Below are positions 22,488 through 26,383 of a stretch of 64,000 nucleotides of DNA, piece after piece. Location: contig JACRME010000001.1 of NCBI GenBank assembly GCA_016235045.1, positions 124,001-188,000 of the forward strand, given 5' to 3'. The position numbers were made by a program, and so were the translations under genes. The stretch is from Nitrosomonadales bacterium (GTDB lineage Bacteria > Pseudomonadota > Gammaproteobacteria > Burkholderiales > Gallionellaceae). The notes under the pieces were generated by a model. It had not been told where the DNA came from. It saw nothing but the letters and a program-made list of their open reading frames with translations, and did no database searches. Each line of letters begins with the position of its first letter. Within the stretch, counting starts at the first letter, position 1.

Positions 22488-23030
22488 TCAGAAAATGAAA
22501 TTAAGGTGCAATTGGCTAAAATTTATGCCTTGGTTCGGCTGCTTGATATCGCCGTTGGAGATGTGCTGAAAGCGATATCCCAAGCCGAATTGGCGGCGCG
22601 CGCCCAAGCTTACCCCGAAACCGACATGGTTGCCGAACTGGAAGGCGCTGCCGAACTTGCGATCAGTATAGATGAAGGCGGGCGAGATCAAATGCACACC
22701 AGCCAATCCGACTTCCAGATACGGTTCCGTACCTCCCCAGTCTGAAAAGGCATTCGGCACAAAGTGGAACACCGGGGTGATCCCGATTTCGGTTATCGTC
22801 TGGTTATTGTCATTCGGCCTGAAGCCGCGCCAACTGCCCAGCGAAGCTTCCCAAAAACCCGTCACCTGCCAGTCGCCATCGTTCCGCCAATTCCTGTCCC
22901 ACTTCCACAGCTCCCCAACGCGGGACATCTCGACCATGTTGGCACGCCCGTACTCGACAAAAACGCCATCGGCACCGCATGCCCGGGATGCCATCAAGGC
23001 GGAGAACATCAGCACGAATATTCTGTTCAT
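22488..23030 (-). CDS. pagL: lipid A 3-O-deacylase PagL family
   Basis: A 180-residue outer-membrane beta-barrel enzyme that removes the 3-O acyl chain of lipid A. A signal peptide ends near residue 19 (ASRACG). The C-terminal catalytic stretch YRFQHISNGDIKQPNQGIN carries the His-Ser pair expected of PagL, and the protein ends in an aromatic residue (LNFIF), as outer-membrane barrels do. It sits 13 bp before dnaX, downstream of the SRP RNA gene, an unusual insertion in the dnaX neighbourhood. Confidence 0.85.
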   Translation of the reverse strand: MNRIFVLMFSALMASRACGADGVFVEYGRANMVEMSRVGELWKWDRNWRNDGDWQVTGFWEASLGSWRGFRPNDNNQTITEIGITPVFHFVPNAFSDWGGTEPYLEVGLAGVHLISPAFIYTDRKFGSAFQFGNHVGFGVSLGARRQFGLGYRFQHISNGDIKQPNQGINFSQLHLNFIF

Positions 23031-23051
23031 CGATACTGGCGCCCCAAATTA

Positions 23052-23150
23052 GGAGGCGAGCCTTACCCCCGGCACTTGCACCGCTTGGCTGTGGCTGCTT
23101 CCTTCCGGACCTGACCAGGTTCACCAAAGTGCAATGCGGGGAGACCCGCC
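23052..23150 (-). ncRNA. ffs: 4.5S RNA of the signal recognition particle
   Basis: On the minus strand the conserved SRP apical loop region ACCTGGTCAGGTCCGGAAGG then AAGCAGCC is present. Flanking halves pair (GGCGGGTC at the 5' end with GGCTCGCC at the 3' end; CCCCGCATTGCAC with GTGCAAGTGCCGGGG), giving the long hairpin of bacterial small SRP RNA, about 99 nt. It sits just upstream of pagL-dnaX. Ends are set by the pairing, to within a few bases. Confidence 0.93.
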
Positions 23151-23303
23151 AATTCGTGAAATTTGAGTCTTAAAGGGCTATTCCTGCAAGCCCGAGACAG
23201 GGGCGCATGATAGTCGAAAAGCGGGGATAAATCCATGAAAGGAGTCGGCGTAAAGGCCCTATCGGGCGCTGCCCTTTACTCTGTGCGTCGCCGAGAATGT
23301 AGG

Positions 23304-23326
23304 GTGGGCACGTTTTGTGTGCCCAC
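23304..23326. repeat. GTGGGCAC/GTGCCCAC hairpin repeat
   Basis: Eight-base arms GTGGGCAC and GTGCCCAC enclose a 7-base loop, preceded by GTAGG. This looks like the short intergenic GTAGGGTGGGCAC-type repeat seen in many proteobacterial genomes. Confidence 0.55.
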
Positions 23327-23347
23327 GCGGATTCTCCAGAACCAACA

Positions 23348-23885
23348 CCGTCGGGGGTAGCCCGACAGCTAGTCACTTTTTCTTGCTTCGCCAAAGAAAA
23401 AGTAACCAAAAAGAAGGCGACCCCGGCGCGCCGCCCCTTCGGGGTTCCCTGCGTTGCTCGACTGGTCAGGCGGCTGCGGAACTCGCGCTACGCGCTCAGA
23501 CAGTCCTCGCCGACTACCCCTGACCAGTCTCCGCTACTCGGCGGCGCACAGGGGATGAAATTCAAAAACAGAACCCCAAAACCTGCGAGGCGGGCAACCG
23601 CCTCGCCAAAACCAAAAAAAGAAGCGTGCGCAAAGCGCACCCAAAACCGCTTTTGACCTTCCTTCCCCTGTGCACCGCCGAGTAGCGCAGGACGTCCGGG
23701 GGCAGTCCGACGAATATGTTTGAGCACGTGGCCGCGTAGCGGATCGTGCGAGTTTATGAGGAGGCCCGGACGTTCGAGCAACGCAGGGAACCCACGCAGT
23801 GGGCGGCGCACCGGGGGCGGCTTCTTTGGGTTACCTTTCTTGCCAAGACAAGAAAGGTAACTTGCTGTCGGGCAACCCCCGACGG
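23348..23885. repeat. 538-bp palindromic intergenic element with two inverted arms
   Basis: The left end (CCGTCGGGGGTAGCCCGACAG from 23348) matches the reverse complement of the right end (CCGTCGGGGGTTGCCCGACAG ending 23885). The similarity continues inward through an AAAGAAAAAGTAACC-like hairpin, a CGCGCCGCCCC block, CCTGCGTTGCTCG and CTACTCGGCGG. Each arm also carries its own stem: ACTGGTCAGG/CCTGACCAGT in the left arm (23461-23470, 23519-23528) and ACGTCCGGG/CCCGGACGT in the right (23692-23700, 23765-23773). A central hairpin GCGAGGCGG/CCGCCTCGC lies near 23595. The whole 23151-24008 stretch has no convincing gene; open frames inside are by-products of the palindrome. Confidence 0.85.
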
Positions 23886-24008
23886 TTTTATTTTGAACCC
23901 TTACGGCGCAATGCCCGTTGGTTATTGAACCCTACGTTGGCTAAAGTCCGCGTTCAGTCGCGCAAGAACGCGCAGCGCGAGCGCGTCGGCTGGTACGCGC
24001 TGTTGGGC

Positions 24009-24830
24009 TTAATTGCGGTTGTAGCCATAGTCTCCTCGGGTTAGCAGCACGCTCTTCCAATATTGCTCTCTTTGAATTATCGCGTTGTCGTCGGTTTTCA
24101 TTGGATGGTGTTCCAGCAGCGCGAATTTGAAATTTTGTCGGGCGTGTTCCTTGCCCGATTTTAAAACCAGTTTCGTAAGCTCGTCGTTGTACCCGTGGGC
24201 TGTTTGGACGTAACACGCCCAACGTGCCCATATGCCAGTGTCCCCGTATGCTGACCCTACATATCGCTTTCCGTTGCTCGTATCCGTGATCAGGTAAACG
24301 CCTTTCATGTTCTCGAGGGCAGCTTTCCAATCAGGACGTTGGATCGCAAAGATTGTTTCTAACATCGGGAAGCCCACGTCTATTTGCTCGTAACCAGGGA
24401 ACGCTTCGCCGGAGTACGGTGCTGGGGCGATTTCTACGACAATGAGGTTCTTGTAATGATTCTCGAAATTCAGAGCCTTGGCTCGGGCGGGACGCTTTAA
24501 CTGAAGTTTCAGACGACCAATGAGAGGCTGGCTGTCTTGTAACAATTCGATGTCGTAGCTGGGTGCGTTATCCAAGGGCTTTCGAGACAGGACGCGATAA
24601 GCGCCTCCGAACAGCCAGCGATCCTTCTCAGGATAGAAATCAATGAGCGAGAAGATATAGTCGCGGCTGAAGTCGTCCCGCACTCCTCTCCACCTGTTCC
24701 AGCCGTCCCACTCTTCACGGTCGCGGACAAACACATCCAACGGTTGATCCTTTCCGTTCCAGCATGCCAGGTGGAGCTTGAATTGCTCGGGATGAACTAT
24801 TGGCAGGACATGAGATAGAAGAATGTTCAT
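24009..24830 (-). CDS. GIY-YIG nuclease-domain protein
   Basis: A 273-residue protein. The N-terminal 180 residues form an unrecognised domain (FRDREEWDGWNRWRG, RDYIFSLIDFYPEKDRWLFGGAYRVL). The C-terminal GIY-YIG domain starts at GVYLITDTSNGKRYVGSAYG, with the conserved Arg in WARWACY and the catalytic Glu candidate in REQYWK. The start at 24830 (MNILLSHVLPI) is favoured over codons overlapping fumarase. It is 32 bp downstream of the fumarase gene. Proteins of this layout occur sporadically beside mobile or defence genes, but nothing here proves such a role. Confidence 0.75.
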   Translation of the reverse strand: MNILLSHVLPIVHPEQFKLHLACWNGKDQPLDVFVRDREEWDGWNRWRGVRDDFSRDYIFSLIDFYPEKDRWLFGGAYRVLSRKPLDNAPSYDIELLQDSQPLIGRLKLQLKRPARAKALNFENHYKNLIVVEIAPAPYSGEAFPGYEQIDVGFPMLETIFAIQRPDWKAALENMKGVYLITDTSNGKRYVGSAYGDTGIWARWACYVQTAHGYNDELTKLVLKSGKEHARQNFKFALLEHHPMKTDDNAIIQREQYWKSVLLTRGDYGYNRN

Positions 24831-24862
24831 GGCATTAGGCCCAACGTAATTCAGACAACATA

Positions 24863-26383
24863 TTACACCGCCTTCACCGCTATCCCCGCAATCCTCCCCT
24901 GCCACTCTTTCGGCCCGGTCTCATGCACCGAAGTCCCATTCACATCCACCGCCACCGTCACCGGCATATCCTGCACAGTGAATTCATAAATAGCCTCCAT
25001 GCCCAGATCGCCGAAAGCCAACACCTTCGATGCCTTAATCGCCTTGGAAACAAGGTAGGCCGCGCCGCCGACCGCCATGAGGTACACAGCCTTGTGCTTC
25101 TTGATCGCCTCGATCGCCTCAGGCCCGCGCTCGGATTTGCCCACCATGCCGATGAGGCCGGTCTGGGCCAGCATGGTCTCGGTGAACTTGTCCATGCGCG
25201 TCGCAGTAGTGGGGCCTGCGGGGCCGACCACTTCGTCGCGCACCGGGTCGACCGGGCCGACGTAGTAGATGAAACGGTTCTTGAAATCCACCGGCAGTTT
25301 CTCGCCCTTCTTCAGCATGTCGGTGATGCGCTTGTGCGCGGCATCGCGGCCGGTGAGCAGCTTGCCGTTCAGCAGCAGCGTTTCGCCCGGTTTGAAGGTA
25401 GCGATCTCTTCGCGCGTGATGGTGTCGAGGTTGACGCGGCGCGATTCTGCCGAGGCTTTCCATTCGACCTTGGGCCAATCCTTGAGCGACGGCGGCGTCA
25501 GCACCGCCGGACCGCTGCCGTCCAGCGTGAAGTGGATATGGCGCGTGGCGGCGCAGTTGGGGATGATGGCGACCGGCAGGCTGGCGGCGTGCGTGGGATA
25601 GTCCCTGATCTTCACATCCACCACGGTGGTGAGGCCGCCAAGCCCCTGCGCACCGATGCCCAGCGCATTGACCTTCTCGAACAGTTCCAGGCGCAGTTCC
25701 TCGATGCGGTTCTTCGCCCCGCGCGCCTGCAGTTCGTGCATGTCCACCGGCTCCATCAGCGCTTCCTTGGCGAGCAGCATGGCCTTCTCCGCCGTGCCGC
25801 CGATGCCGATGCCGAGGATGCCGGGCGGGCACCAGCCGGCGCCCATCTCGGGCACGGTCTCCAGCACCCAGTCCACAATGCTGTCGGAGGGATTCAGCGC
25901 GACAAACTTGGATTTGTTCTCCGAGCCGCCGCCCTTGGCCGCGAGGATGATGTCCACCTTGTTGCCAGGCACGATCTCGTAATTGATGACGGCGGGCGTG
26001 TTGTCCTTGGTGTTCTTACGGGCGCCAGCAGGATCGGCCAGCACCGATGCGCGCAGCATGTTGTCCGGATGCAGGTAGGCGCGGCGCACGCCTTCGTTGA
26101 TCATGTCCGAGACACCCATGGTCGCGCCGTCCCAGCGCACGTCCATGCCCACCTTGACGAAGACAGAGACGATGCCGGTGTCCTGGCAAAGGGGGCGGTG
26201 GCCTTCCGCGCTCATGCGTGAATTGGTGAGTATCTGCGCGATGGCATCGCGCGCGGCGGGCGATTGTTCGCGTTCGTAAGCGCGGCCCAGCGCCTGCACG
26301 TAGTCGAGCGGATGGTAGTAAGAGATGTATTGCAGCGCGTCGGCGACGCTGTCGATTAAGTCCTGCTGGCGAATCGTGGTCAT
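24863..26383 (-). CDS. fumA: fumarate hydratase class I (4Fe-4S)
   Basis: A 506-residue iron-sulfur fumarase interconverting fumarate and malate in the TCA cycle. The three cluster cysteines are visible in RPLCQDTG, GAGWCPPGILG and IPNCAATRHIHF. AKGGGSENKS and VGPAGPTTATRMDKF are further family motifs. The length matches the single-chain FumA/FumB type. It is divergent from ylqF (99 bp gap). Being oxygen-sensitive, this type suits microaerobic or iron-rich life. Confidence 0.95.
   Translation of the reverse strand: MTTIRQQDLIDSVADALQYISYYHPLDYVQALGRAYEREQSPAARDAIAQILTNSRMSAEGHRPLCQDTGIVSVFVKVGMDVRWDGATMGVSDMINEGVRRAYLHPDNMLRASVLADPAGARKNTKDNTPAVINYEIVPGNKVDIILAAKGGGSENKSKFVALNPSDSIVDWVLETVPEMGAGWCPPGILGIGIGGTAEKAMLLAKEALMEPVDMHELQARGAKNRIEELRLELFEKVNALGIGAQGLGGLTTVVDVKIRDYPTHAASLPVAIIPNCAATRHIHFTLDGSGPAVLTPPSLKDWPKVEWKASAESRRVNLDTITREEIATFKPGETLLLNGKLLTGRDAAHKRITDMLKKGEKLPVDFKNRFIYYVGPVDPVRDEVVGPAGPTTATRMDKFTETMLAQTGLIGMVGKSERGPEAIEAIKKHKAVYLMAVGGAAYLVSKAIKASKVLAFGDLGMEAIYEFTVQDMPVTVAVDVNGTSVHETGPKEWQGRIAGIAVKAV

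What the first reader, a model, noticed from the sequence alone, without database searches (positions are those of the whole stretch)
23348..23885. 538-bp giant palindrome whose two arms carry different but equally complementary stems
The element is two inverted, homologous arms. At the same place in each arm, between GCGTTGCTCG and CTACTCGGCGG, sits a stem: ACTGGTCAGG/CCTGACCAGT on the left, ACGTCCGGG/CCCGGACGT on the right. Sequences differ yet pairing is kept. The terminal hairpins also covary (AGTCACTTTTTCTT pairs with AAGAAAAAGTAACC; the right arm has TTACCTTTCTTG with CAAGAAAGGTAA). Compensated change implies selection on folded DNA or RNA. It could be a mobilised single-strand element, a phage or RAYT-type substrate, or an RNA. 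No transposase is nearby.
Basis: partly seen in the sequence, partly recalled or inferred. Interest (0 to 1): 0.72.

Follow-up and report, generated by a model that had tools for sequence, protein, structure and literature searches.

The report
Structured palindromes capping single foreign genes
The 538-base palindrome is one of a large family of folded repeats in iron-oxidising bacteria and some relatives that flank or cap single foreign genes, and together they look like interchangeable gene cassettes whose moving enzyme is not yet known.

Summary
23348-23885 is two inverted homologous arms; in 167 comparable arms the variable stem pairs 8.64 of 9 positions (7.79 with 3' halves shuffled), in at least 12 different fully paired versions. 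It is a dispersed family: 23 of 25 genomes of the genus match. Neighbouring arms face each other in 104 of 111 adjacencies, in two forms. Short elements, like the window's, are asymmetric; the longest ORF on one defined side ends facing the element in 21 of 22, with lower G+C on that side in 19 of 22. Long elements enclose mostly one unrelated ORF of low G+C (0.445 against 0.592 in flanks, 47 of 48). One site holds different cargo in two species and no arms in four. Beside fumarase, 11 genomes carry 11 unrelated ORFs. No target duplication. An integron integrase or a Y1 transposase was not found in every arm-rich genome, and none of 20 Y1 loci has an arm. Best reading: non-autonomous, hairpin-rich cassette elements with outward terminators, moved by an unidentified recombinase, by homologous exchange, or both. 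Movement itself, and selection on the stems, are not shown.

The parts
23348..23885 (+). short (asymmetric) form of the arm element; ARM1 left, ARM2 right
23348..23554 (+). left arm (ARM1, type L)
   Evidence: profile match 2-206, 220 bits
23665..23885 (-). right arm (ARM2, type R), inverted
   Evidence: profile match 2-206, 170 bits
23461..23528 (+). left variable stem ACTGGTCAGG/CCTGACCAGT with the loop between
23692..23773 (+). right variable stem ACGTCCGGG/CCCGGACGT with the loop between
23372..23406 (+). left second hairpin GTCACTTTTTCTT/AAGAAAAAGTAAC
   Evidence: (I6)
23830..23861 (+). right second hairpin GTTACCTTTCTTG/CAAGAAAGGTAAC
   Evidence: (I5)
23347..23369 (-). outermost left hairpin, intrinsic-terminator-like, pointing out of the element
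   Evidence: 7 such sites in 22900-24100, 2.0 sd 1.5 in shuffles
23864..23886 (+). outermost right hairpin, intrinsic-terminator-like, pointing out of the element
23585..23606 (+). inner hairpin 1 (GCGAGGCGGG..CCGCCTCGC), ARM1 side of the spacer
23626..23640 (+). inner hairpin 2 (GTGCGC..GCGCAC), ARM2 side of the spacer; used to orient short elements
23299..23330 (+). GTAG-type REP outside the left arm
   Evidence: REP kind as in PMC3733652
23905..23935 (-). GTAG-type REP outside the right arm
24009..24827 (-). accessory gene with a GIY-YIG domain (ORF 24009-24905; likely start 24827, my reading), its 3' end facing ARM2, directly downstream of the fumarase-like gene
   Evidence: PF01541 23.2 bits, cut-off 22.6; 1 of 61 genomes
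24863..26383 (-). fumarase-like gene (called fumC here; name from recall), conserved neighbour
23052..23150 (-). 4.5S (SRP) RNA gene, conserved neighbour on the other side
   Evidence: RF00169, 83.7 bits

Best explanation
The palindrome belongs to a family of non-autonomous, hairpin-rich elements that package single foreign genes. Each arm is a folded unit: an outward terminator, two simple hairpins, then a branched stem that contains the variable stem. In the long form two arms, mostly of one type, enclose a foreign ORF. In the short form (the window) an asymmetric arm pair without a gene caps the 3' end of a foreign ORF, which often starts just after the stop of a conserved gene, so that it can be read from that gene and stopped at the cap. 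These modules turn over: a chromosomal site carries different cargo, or none, in different species, and short elements at one site are no closer to each other than to elements elsewhere. Most likely a trans-acting recombinase that recognises the folded single strand moves them, with added exchange of cargo by homologous recombination in the arms. Shown: repeat family, facing pairs, paired variable stems, orientation to the neighbouring ORF, low G+C of cargo, cargo differences at fixed sites, no target duplication. Predicted only: termination. Inferred: movement, its enzyme, the single-strand substrate, expression by read-through.
For: Facing orientation +- in 104 of 111 adjacent arm pairs, never -+ (some loci overlap). 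93 distinct facing pairs, 43 short and 50 long. Long form: 3 related pairs among 60 ORFs; main-ORF G+C 0.445 vs 0.592 in flanks, lower in 47 of 48 loci. Short form: longest ORF on the ARM2 side ends facing the element in 21 of 22; that side has lower G+C in 19 of 22, p 4e-4 (six of the 22 are at the 4.5S RNA site). fumC site: 10 loci with arms (one with only their outer thirds) and 1 with a remnant carry 11 ORFs without homology to each other, all lower in G+C than the start of their locus; 19 loci empty, 11 of the 41 not comparable. L051 site: similar arms (left 95% identical, flanks 86-87%) around different ORFs in the window genome and G005, no arms in G003, G046, G016, G020. Same-site short elements 0.755 identical, different-site 0.768; nearest is same-site in 7 of 21, label-shuffle mean 5.2. 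Outward terminators. Facing arms in remote families at 10 of 16 loci.
Against: No autonomous copy: no transposase or recombinase above cut-off in the 40 of 60 cargo ORFs scanned with Pfam. No movement was observed; the genomes compared are different species. On the ARM1 side, too, the longest ORF points at the element in 16 of 22, so part of the orientation is the usual place of such repeats between gene ends. Empty and occupied fumC sites differ in the DNA next to the 4.5S RNA gene, so the difference may follow two lineages. The longest-ORF rule may pick spurious ORFs (two at the fumC site have 85 aa). Site labels rest on fuzzy word matches and cover 21 of 32 elements. Outside the arms lies a mosaic of REPs, so the true ends are uncertain.
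Confidence: 0.55

Rival explanations
1. The arms do not transpose; they are widely shared homology blocks, and cargo is swapped by RecA-type recombination of incoming DNA, with an arm as one anchor and an arm or the neighbouring conserved gene as the other.
For: Cargo differs while arms are similar at one site. In L034/L057 and L119/L171 homology covers the element plus one flank and stops 0-18 bp outside the other end. Short elements sit behind ORFs of which many start just after a conserved gene.
Against: Does not by itself explain how elements reach new intergenic sites or why the palindromic form is kept; short elements at one site are not closer to each other than to those elsewhere.
Confidence: 0.25
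2. The arms are terminal repeats of a Y1 (RAYT or TIRYT type) tyrosine transposase and are moved by it as folded single strands.
For: Hairpin-rich, no target duplication. Y1 genes in 26 of 41 genomes. In the window genome two Y1 genes are flanked by inverted GTAG REPs of types also seen outside arms. A Y1 gene in G005 is flanked by repeats, on one side containing CAATTCGACTCCGGTAC, a word also found near the start of many cargoes.
Against: No arm at any of 20 Y1 loci examined (not all Y1 loci were fetched). No Y1 match in G004 (one contig), G006, G014 and G021, all 99% complete, with 19, 9, 11 and 24 arm matches.
Confidence: 0.15
3. The units are integron gene cassettes and the palindrome is a large attC-like site used by the integron integrase.
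For: The window genome has an integron integrase (467.8 bits, cut-off 265). attC-like sites lie inside the cargo of L133 and L175. At the fumC site GTTGGGC, GTTAGGT, GTTAGGC or GTTAGGG stands just before the ORF in the window, L191, L192 and L190, and GCCCAAC follows the window gene's stop. ORF followed by an oriented palindrome is cassette-like.
Against: The relaxed attC finder gave 42 hits in 1.4 Mb against 19 in one shuffle; neither finder hit the window. Among the 20 short-element ORFs printed, GTTRRRY stands within 40 bp of the likely start only in the window and L028 (the L191 site); two could not be read. 14 of 25 genomes of the genus have no integrase match over the cut-off, among them G003 (43 arm matches), G020 (29), G023 (24) and G004 (19).
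Confidence: 0.05
4. They are bidirectional terminators or REP-like repeats that gather at gene ends, with stems kept paired by template switching; the neighbouring foreign genes are secondary.
For: Outward terminators; mosaics with REPs; ORFs on both sides tend to end facing the element (21 and 16 of 22).
Against: Does not predict facing arms around single foreign ORFs, low G+C inside, or lower G+C on one defined side of short elements.
Confidence: 0.1

Closest known systems
GTAG and CGTC REPs, REPtrons and TIRtrons (Di Nocera et al. 2013, PMC3733652; abstract, section 16 and passages seen)
   Same: Palindromic, dispersed, often in inverted pairs at gene ends; the outermost arm hairpin begins CGTC; families of long TIRs are described there
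   Different: REPs are 20-40 bp single hairpins; no arm found at 20 Y1 loci; arms are about 200 bp with several hairpins and enclose or cap unrelated genes
Integron gene cassettes with attC sites (features recalled; papers seen as search listings only)
   Same: Single foreign ORF followed by an oriented folded palindrome; large pool of genes without known function
   Different: No attC found in the window element; two enclosing arms in the long form; integrase not found in every arm-rich genome
pdif modules of Acinetobacter (features recalled; papers seen as a search listing only)
   Same: Genes between inverted copies of a repeat, no transposase inside
   Different: pdif sites are short XerC/XerD sites; such sites were not searched for here
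MITEs and mobile insertion cassettes (recalled; MITEs described in the background of PMC3733652)
   Same: Non-autonomous, terminal inverted repeats, may carry genes
   Different: No target duplication seen; ends are complex folded arms; no parent transposon known

Membership tests
RAYT/TIRYT-associated repeats | repeat flanks a Y1 transposase gene | tested here: not met
   0 of 20 Y1 loci have an arm match at E up to 1; other Y1 loci not examined
RAYT/TIRYT-associated repeats | Y1 gene present in genomes with the repeat | tested here: not met
   no PF01797 match in G004, G006, G014, G021, which have 9-24 arm matches
GTAG/CGTC REPs | 20-40 bp single hairpin with a GTAG or CGTC tag | tested here: not met
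   arms of 207 and 221 bp with several hairpins; only the outermost hairpin resembles a CGTC REP
Integron cassette | attC site at the 3' end of the ORF | tested here: inconclusive
   attC-like sites in the cargo of L133 and L175; none in the window; home-made finders, not IntegronFinder
Integron cassette | integron integrase in the genome | tested here: inconclusive
   over cut-off in the window genome and in 11 of 25 genomes of the genus; G011 has pieces below it
MITE of a DDE transposon | target-site duplication | tested here: not met
   longest shared word 4.36 against 4.35 in the control, n=66 pairs
MITE of a DDE transposon | terminal inverted repeats without coding capacity | tested here: met
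   facing arms; two frames across the short element give no family above cut-off
pdif/Xer modules | XerC/XerD binding sites at the ends | not tested
   no search with a dif model was run
Known structured RNA | Rfam match at the gathering score | tested here: not met
   none over the element

The most novel reading that the evidence does not exclude
A separate kind of bacterial single-gene cassette system, distinct from integrons, Xer modules and transposons: foreign genes are enclosed or capped by oriented, multi-hairpin palindromes that are recognised as folded single strands, expressed from a neighbouring conserved gene or their own promoter, insulated by built-in terminators, and moved by a dedicated enzyme encoded elsewhere.
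Probability: 0.3. Interest if true: 0.9.

Novelty: new variant of a known kind. Interest (0 to 1): 0.72.

Why it matters
It points to a route by which iron-oxidising and related bacteria gain single genes, many without a known family and some with HEPN, RES, Mrr or HNH domains. A 200-bp arm profile would be a simple handle to harvest such genes. It is also a test case for why long palindromes with compensated stems persist in genomes that are expected to delete them.

Tried and rejected
RNA family: no Rfam match at gathering score over the element. Plasmid or phage home: no match in 72,556 plasmid or 50,697 phage records; an exact pattern hit one IMG/VR contig. Integron integrase and Y1 transposase as necessary agents: see rivals. 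Protein-coding reading of the arms: two frames gave no family above cut-off. Target duplication: none. Literature: ten searches of an open-access library that lacks most subscription journals and all preprints showed no description of these elements; searches returned no paper, and only PMC3733652 was opened.

Analyses dropped or superseded: strict attC finders; two interior hits against 0-2 in shuffles. The RNAalifold consensus gave 24 pairs with 97.7% of cells paired (40-50% when slid) but missed the variable stem because gaps broke it, so stems were counted from anchors; one search had false anchors and was replaced. Rows dropped: arms under 90 bits or not full length; 25 of 192 arms without anchors; short elements without callable orientation or 500-bp flanks; 11 of 32 short elements without a site label; 2 of 50 long loci without enough flank. 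One search stopped with a file error after printing its first results.

Full report
OBSERVATION. The window stretch 23348-23885 consists of two inverted homologous arms around a spacer of about 110 bases. Folded as single-stranded DNA it reaches -196.9 kcal/mol, z -18. The two variable stems differ in sequence and are each fully paired.

COPIES. The window genome has 21 BLAST matches, at six sites by my reading. Among 41 genomes 26 match: 23 of 25 of the genus and 3 others. The genus is probably Sideroxydans: contig lengths of two congeners equal those of records titled Sideroxydans. In 369 genomes spread over the class, 22 matched, the window genome included, in 16 families. Of 16 such remote loci fetched, 10 show facing arms (9 short, 1 long) and 6 a single arm.

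COVARIATION. Of 192 distinct arms, 167 had both anchors. Of the nine stem positions 8.64 paired on average; when the 3' halves were dealt out among arms, 7.79 (largest of 50 shuffles 7.92). 116 arms pair at 9 of 9, 44 at 8, 7 at 7 or fewer. Fully paired versions include CTGGTCAGG/CCTGACCAG, ACCAGACAG/CTGTCTGGT, CAAGCCGGG/CCCGGCTTG, GCAAGTCAG/CTGACTTGC and ACGTCCGGG/CCCGGACGT. The second and third hairpins also occur in several self-complementary versions. Pairing is thus conserved. Selection is one reading; copying of one half from the other, or shuffling of whole modules, are others that I did not separate.

TWO FORMS. Among adjacent arm matches 104 were +-, 5 --, 2 ++ and none -+ (some loci overlap). 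After removal of duplicates 93 facing pairs remain, 43 with interiors of 91-319 bp and 50 with 567-3051 bp. Most short interiors are alike across species and asymmetric, with a GCGGGC-type hairpin on one side and a GTGCGC hairpin on the other; some from other lineages differ. Long elements are mostly LL (28 of 50; typing by simple words left 14 not fully called).

CARGO OF THE LONG FORM. Most interiors hold one main ORF; some hold two or more. Of 60 ORFs only three pairs are related at 1e-4. Of 40 scanned with Pfam, 16 have a family above its cut-off: RES, HEPN (2), BRCT, DUF4238, KilA-N, Mrr-type (2), LprI (marginal), DUF3800, PD40 repeats, DUF4145, AAA, HTH, DUF2441 and HNH. Of 20 scanned with PADLOC, five had a hit. 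None of the 40 is a transposase by these models; L162, not scanned, holds an ORF that looks like an IS110 transposase to my eye. G+C of the main ORF is lower than in the flanks in 47 of 48 loci (0.445 against 0.592).

NEIGHBOUR OF THE SHORT FORM. For 22 short elements with callable orientation, the longest ORF on the GTGCGC side (ARM2) ends facing the element in 21, within 150 bp in 19, and that side has lower G+C in 19 (0.497 against 0.579, p 4e-4). On the other side, too, the longest ORF points at the element in 16 of 22, so part of this reflects a place between gene ends. Printed junctions show that many ARM2-side ORFs begin shortly after the end of another, G+C-rich gene; I recognised the fumarase-like end and, from recall, polA-like and aroC-like ends. 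In the window the order is fumarase-like gene, GIY-YIG gene, element. The GIY-YIG gene was found in 1 of 61 genomes, its own.

SITES COMPARED. Between the 4.5S RNA gene and the fumarase-like gene, of 41 loci (40 fetched and the window) 10 carry arms, one of them only the outer thirds; 1 has a remnant; 19 are empty; 11 are not comparable. The 11 non-empty loci carry 11 different ORFs: the only significant blastp match among them is a 15-residue stretch at the fumarase end, and one has a weak match (E 0.004) to a cargo elsewhere. All 11 have lower G+C than the first 1.5 kb of their locus. Occupied and empty loci differ next to the 4.5S RNA gene, so this may follow lineages. At the L051 site the window genome and G005 carry similar arms around different ORFs (304 and 357 aa), while G003, G046, G016 and G020 have no arm between the same flanks; G050 could not be compared. 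In G016 and G020 a single CCCTCTCCC-type palindrome stands there. At the L050 site the left flank in G003 adjoins an element with a DUF4238 cargo. Short elements at the same labelled site are 0.755 identical on average and at different sites 0.768; the nearest labelled one is at the same site in 7 of 21 (shuffle mean 5.2; 284 of 1000 shuffles reach 7). So there is no sign that the elements were simply inherited in place.

MECHANISM. No target duplication. Just outside the arms the two flanks mirror each other more within than between elements (0.67 against 0.55 in the first 15 bases) and run into mosaics of REPs. An integron integrase is over the cut-off in 17 of 41 genomes, the window's included, and not in several arm-rich ones. 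Y1 genes occur in 26 of 41 and were not found in four 99%-complete genomes with arms; none of 20 Y1 loci has an arm. I commit to non-autonomous cassette elements moved in trans by an unidentified enzyme, with homologous exchange at the arms as the strongest rival. Termination is predicted, not measured.

NOVELTY. Ten searches of the open-access library showed no description. The nearest published frame seen is the REP and TIRtron survey PMC3733652 (abstract, section 16, passages). I file this as a new variant of a known kind, structured mobile repeats that carry genes, because neither the enzyme nor the movement is shown.

Noticed in passing
L154:1749-2783 and L057:141-1175: A 344-aa tyrosine integrase gene (PF00589 85 bits for L154; 80% identical in L057) stands next to the outer end of an arm, with alike flank sequence up to the same base, in two species, as if its island used the arm end as attachment site.
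   Followed up: partly
L281 (G005:C34:161000-163800), 923-956, 1147-1180, 1939-1972: Inverted repeats around a Y1 transposase gene share ATCGACTCCGGTAC or CAATTCGACTCCGGTAC with a motif near the 5' end of many cargo ORFs and, in a few loci, away from arms (31 distinct occurrences with up to 5 substitutions).
   Followed up: partly
L266 and L268 (window genome): Two Y1 transposase genes lie between inverted GTAG REPs of types also seen outside arms, as in REPtrons.
   Followed up: partly
L133:5116-5180 and L175:2891-2953: attC-like sites inside arm-bounded cargo, so some cargo may come from integrons.
   Followed up: partly
G000:C10:2341-3282: The window's genome carries an integron integrase gene (467.8 bits).
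   Followed up: partly
L189:1042-1627: A contig of the viral collection (IMGVR_UViG_3300045051_001524) carries a short arm element.
   Followed up: no
L034/L057 and L119/L171: Pairs of related elements share one flank and part company at the other end, which suggests rearrangement at arm ends.
   Followed up: partly
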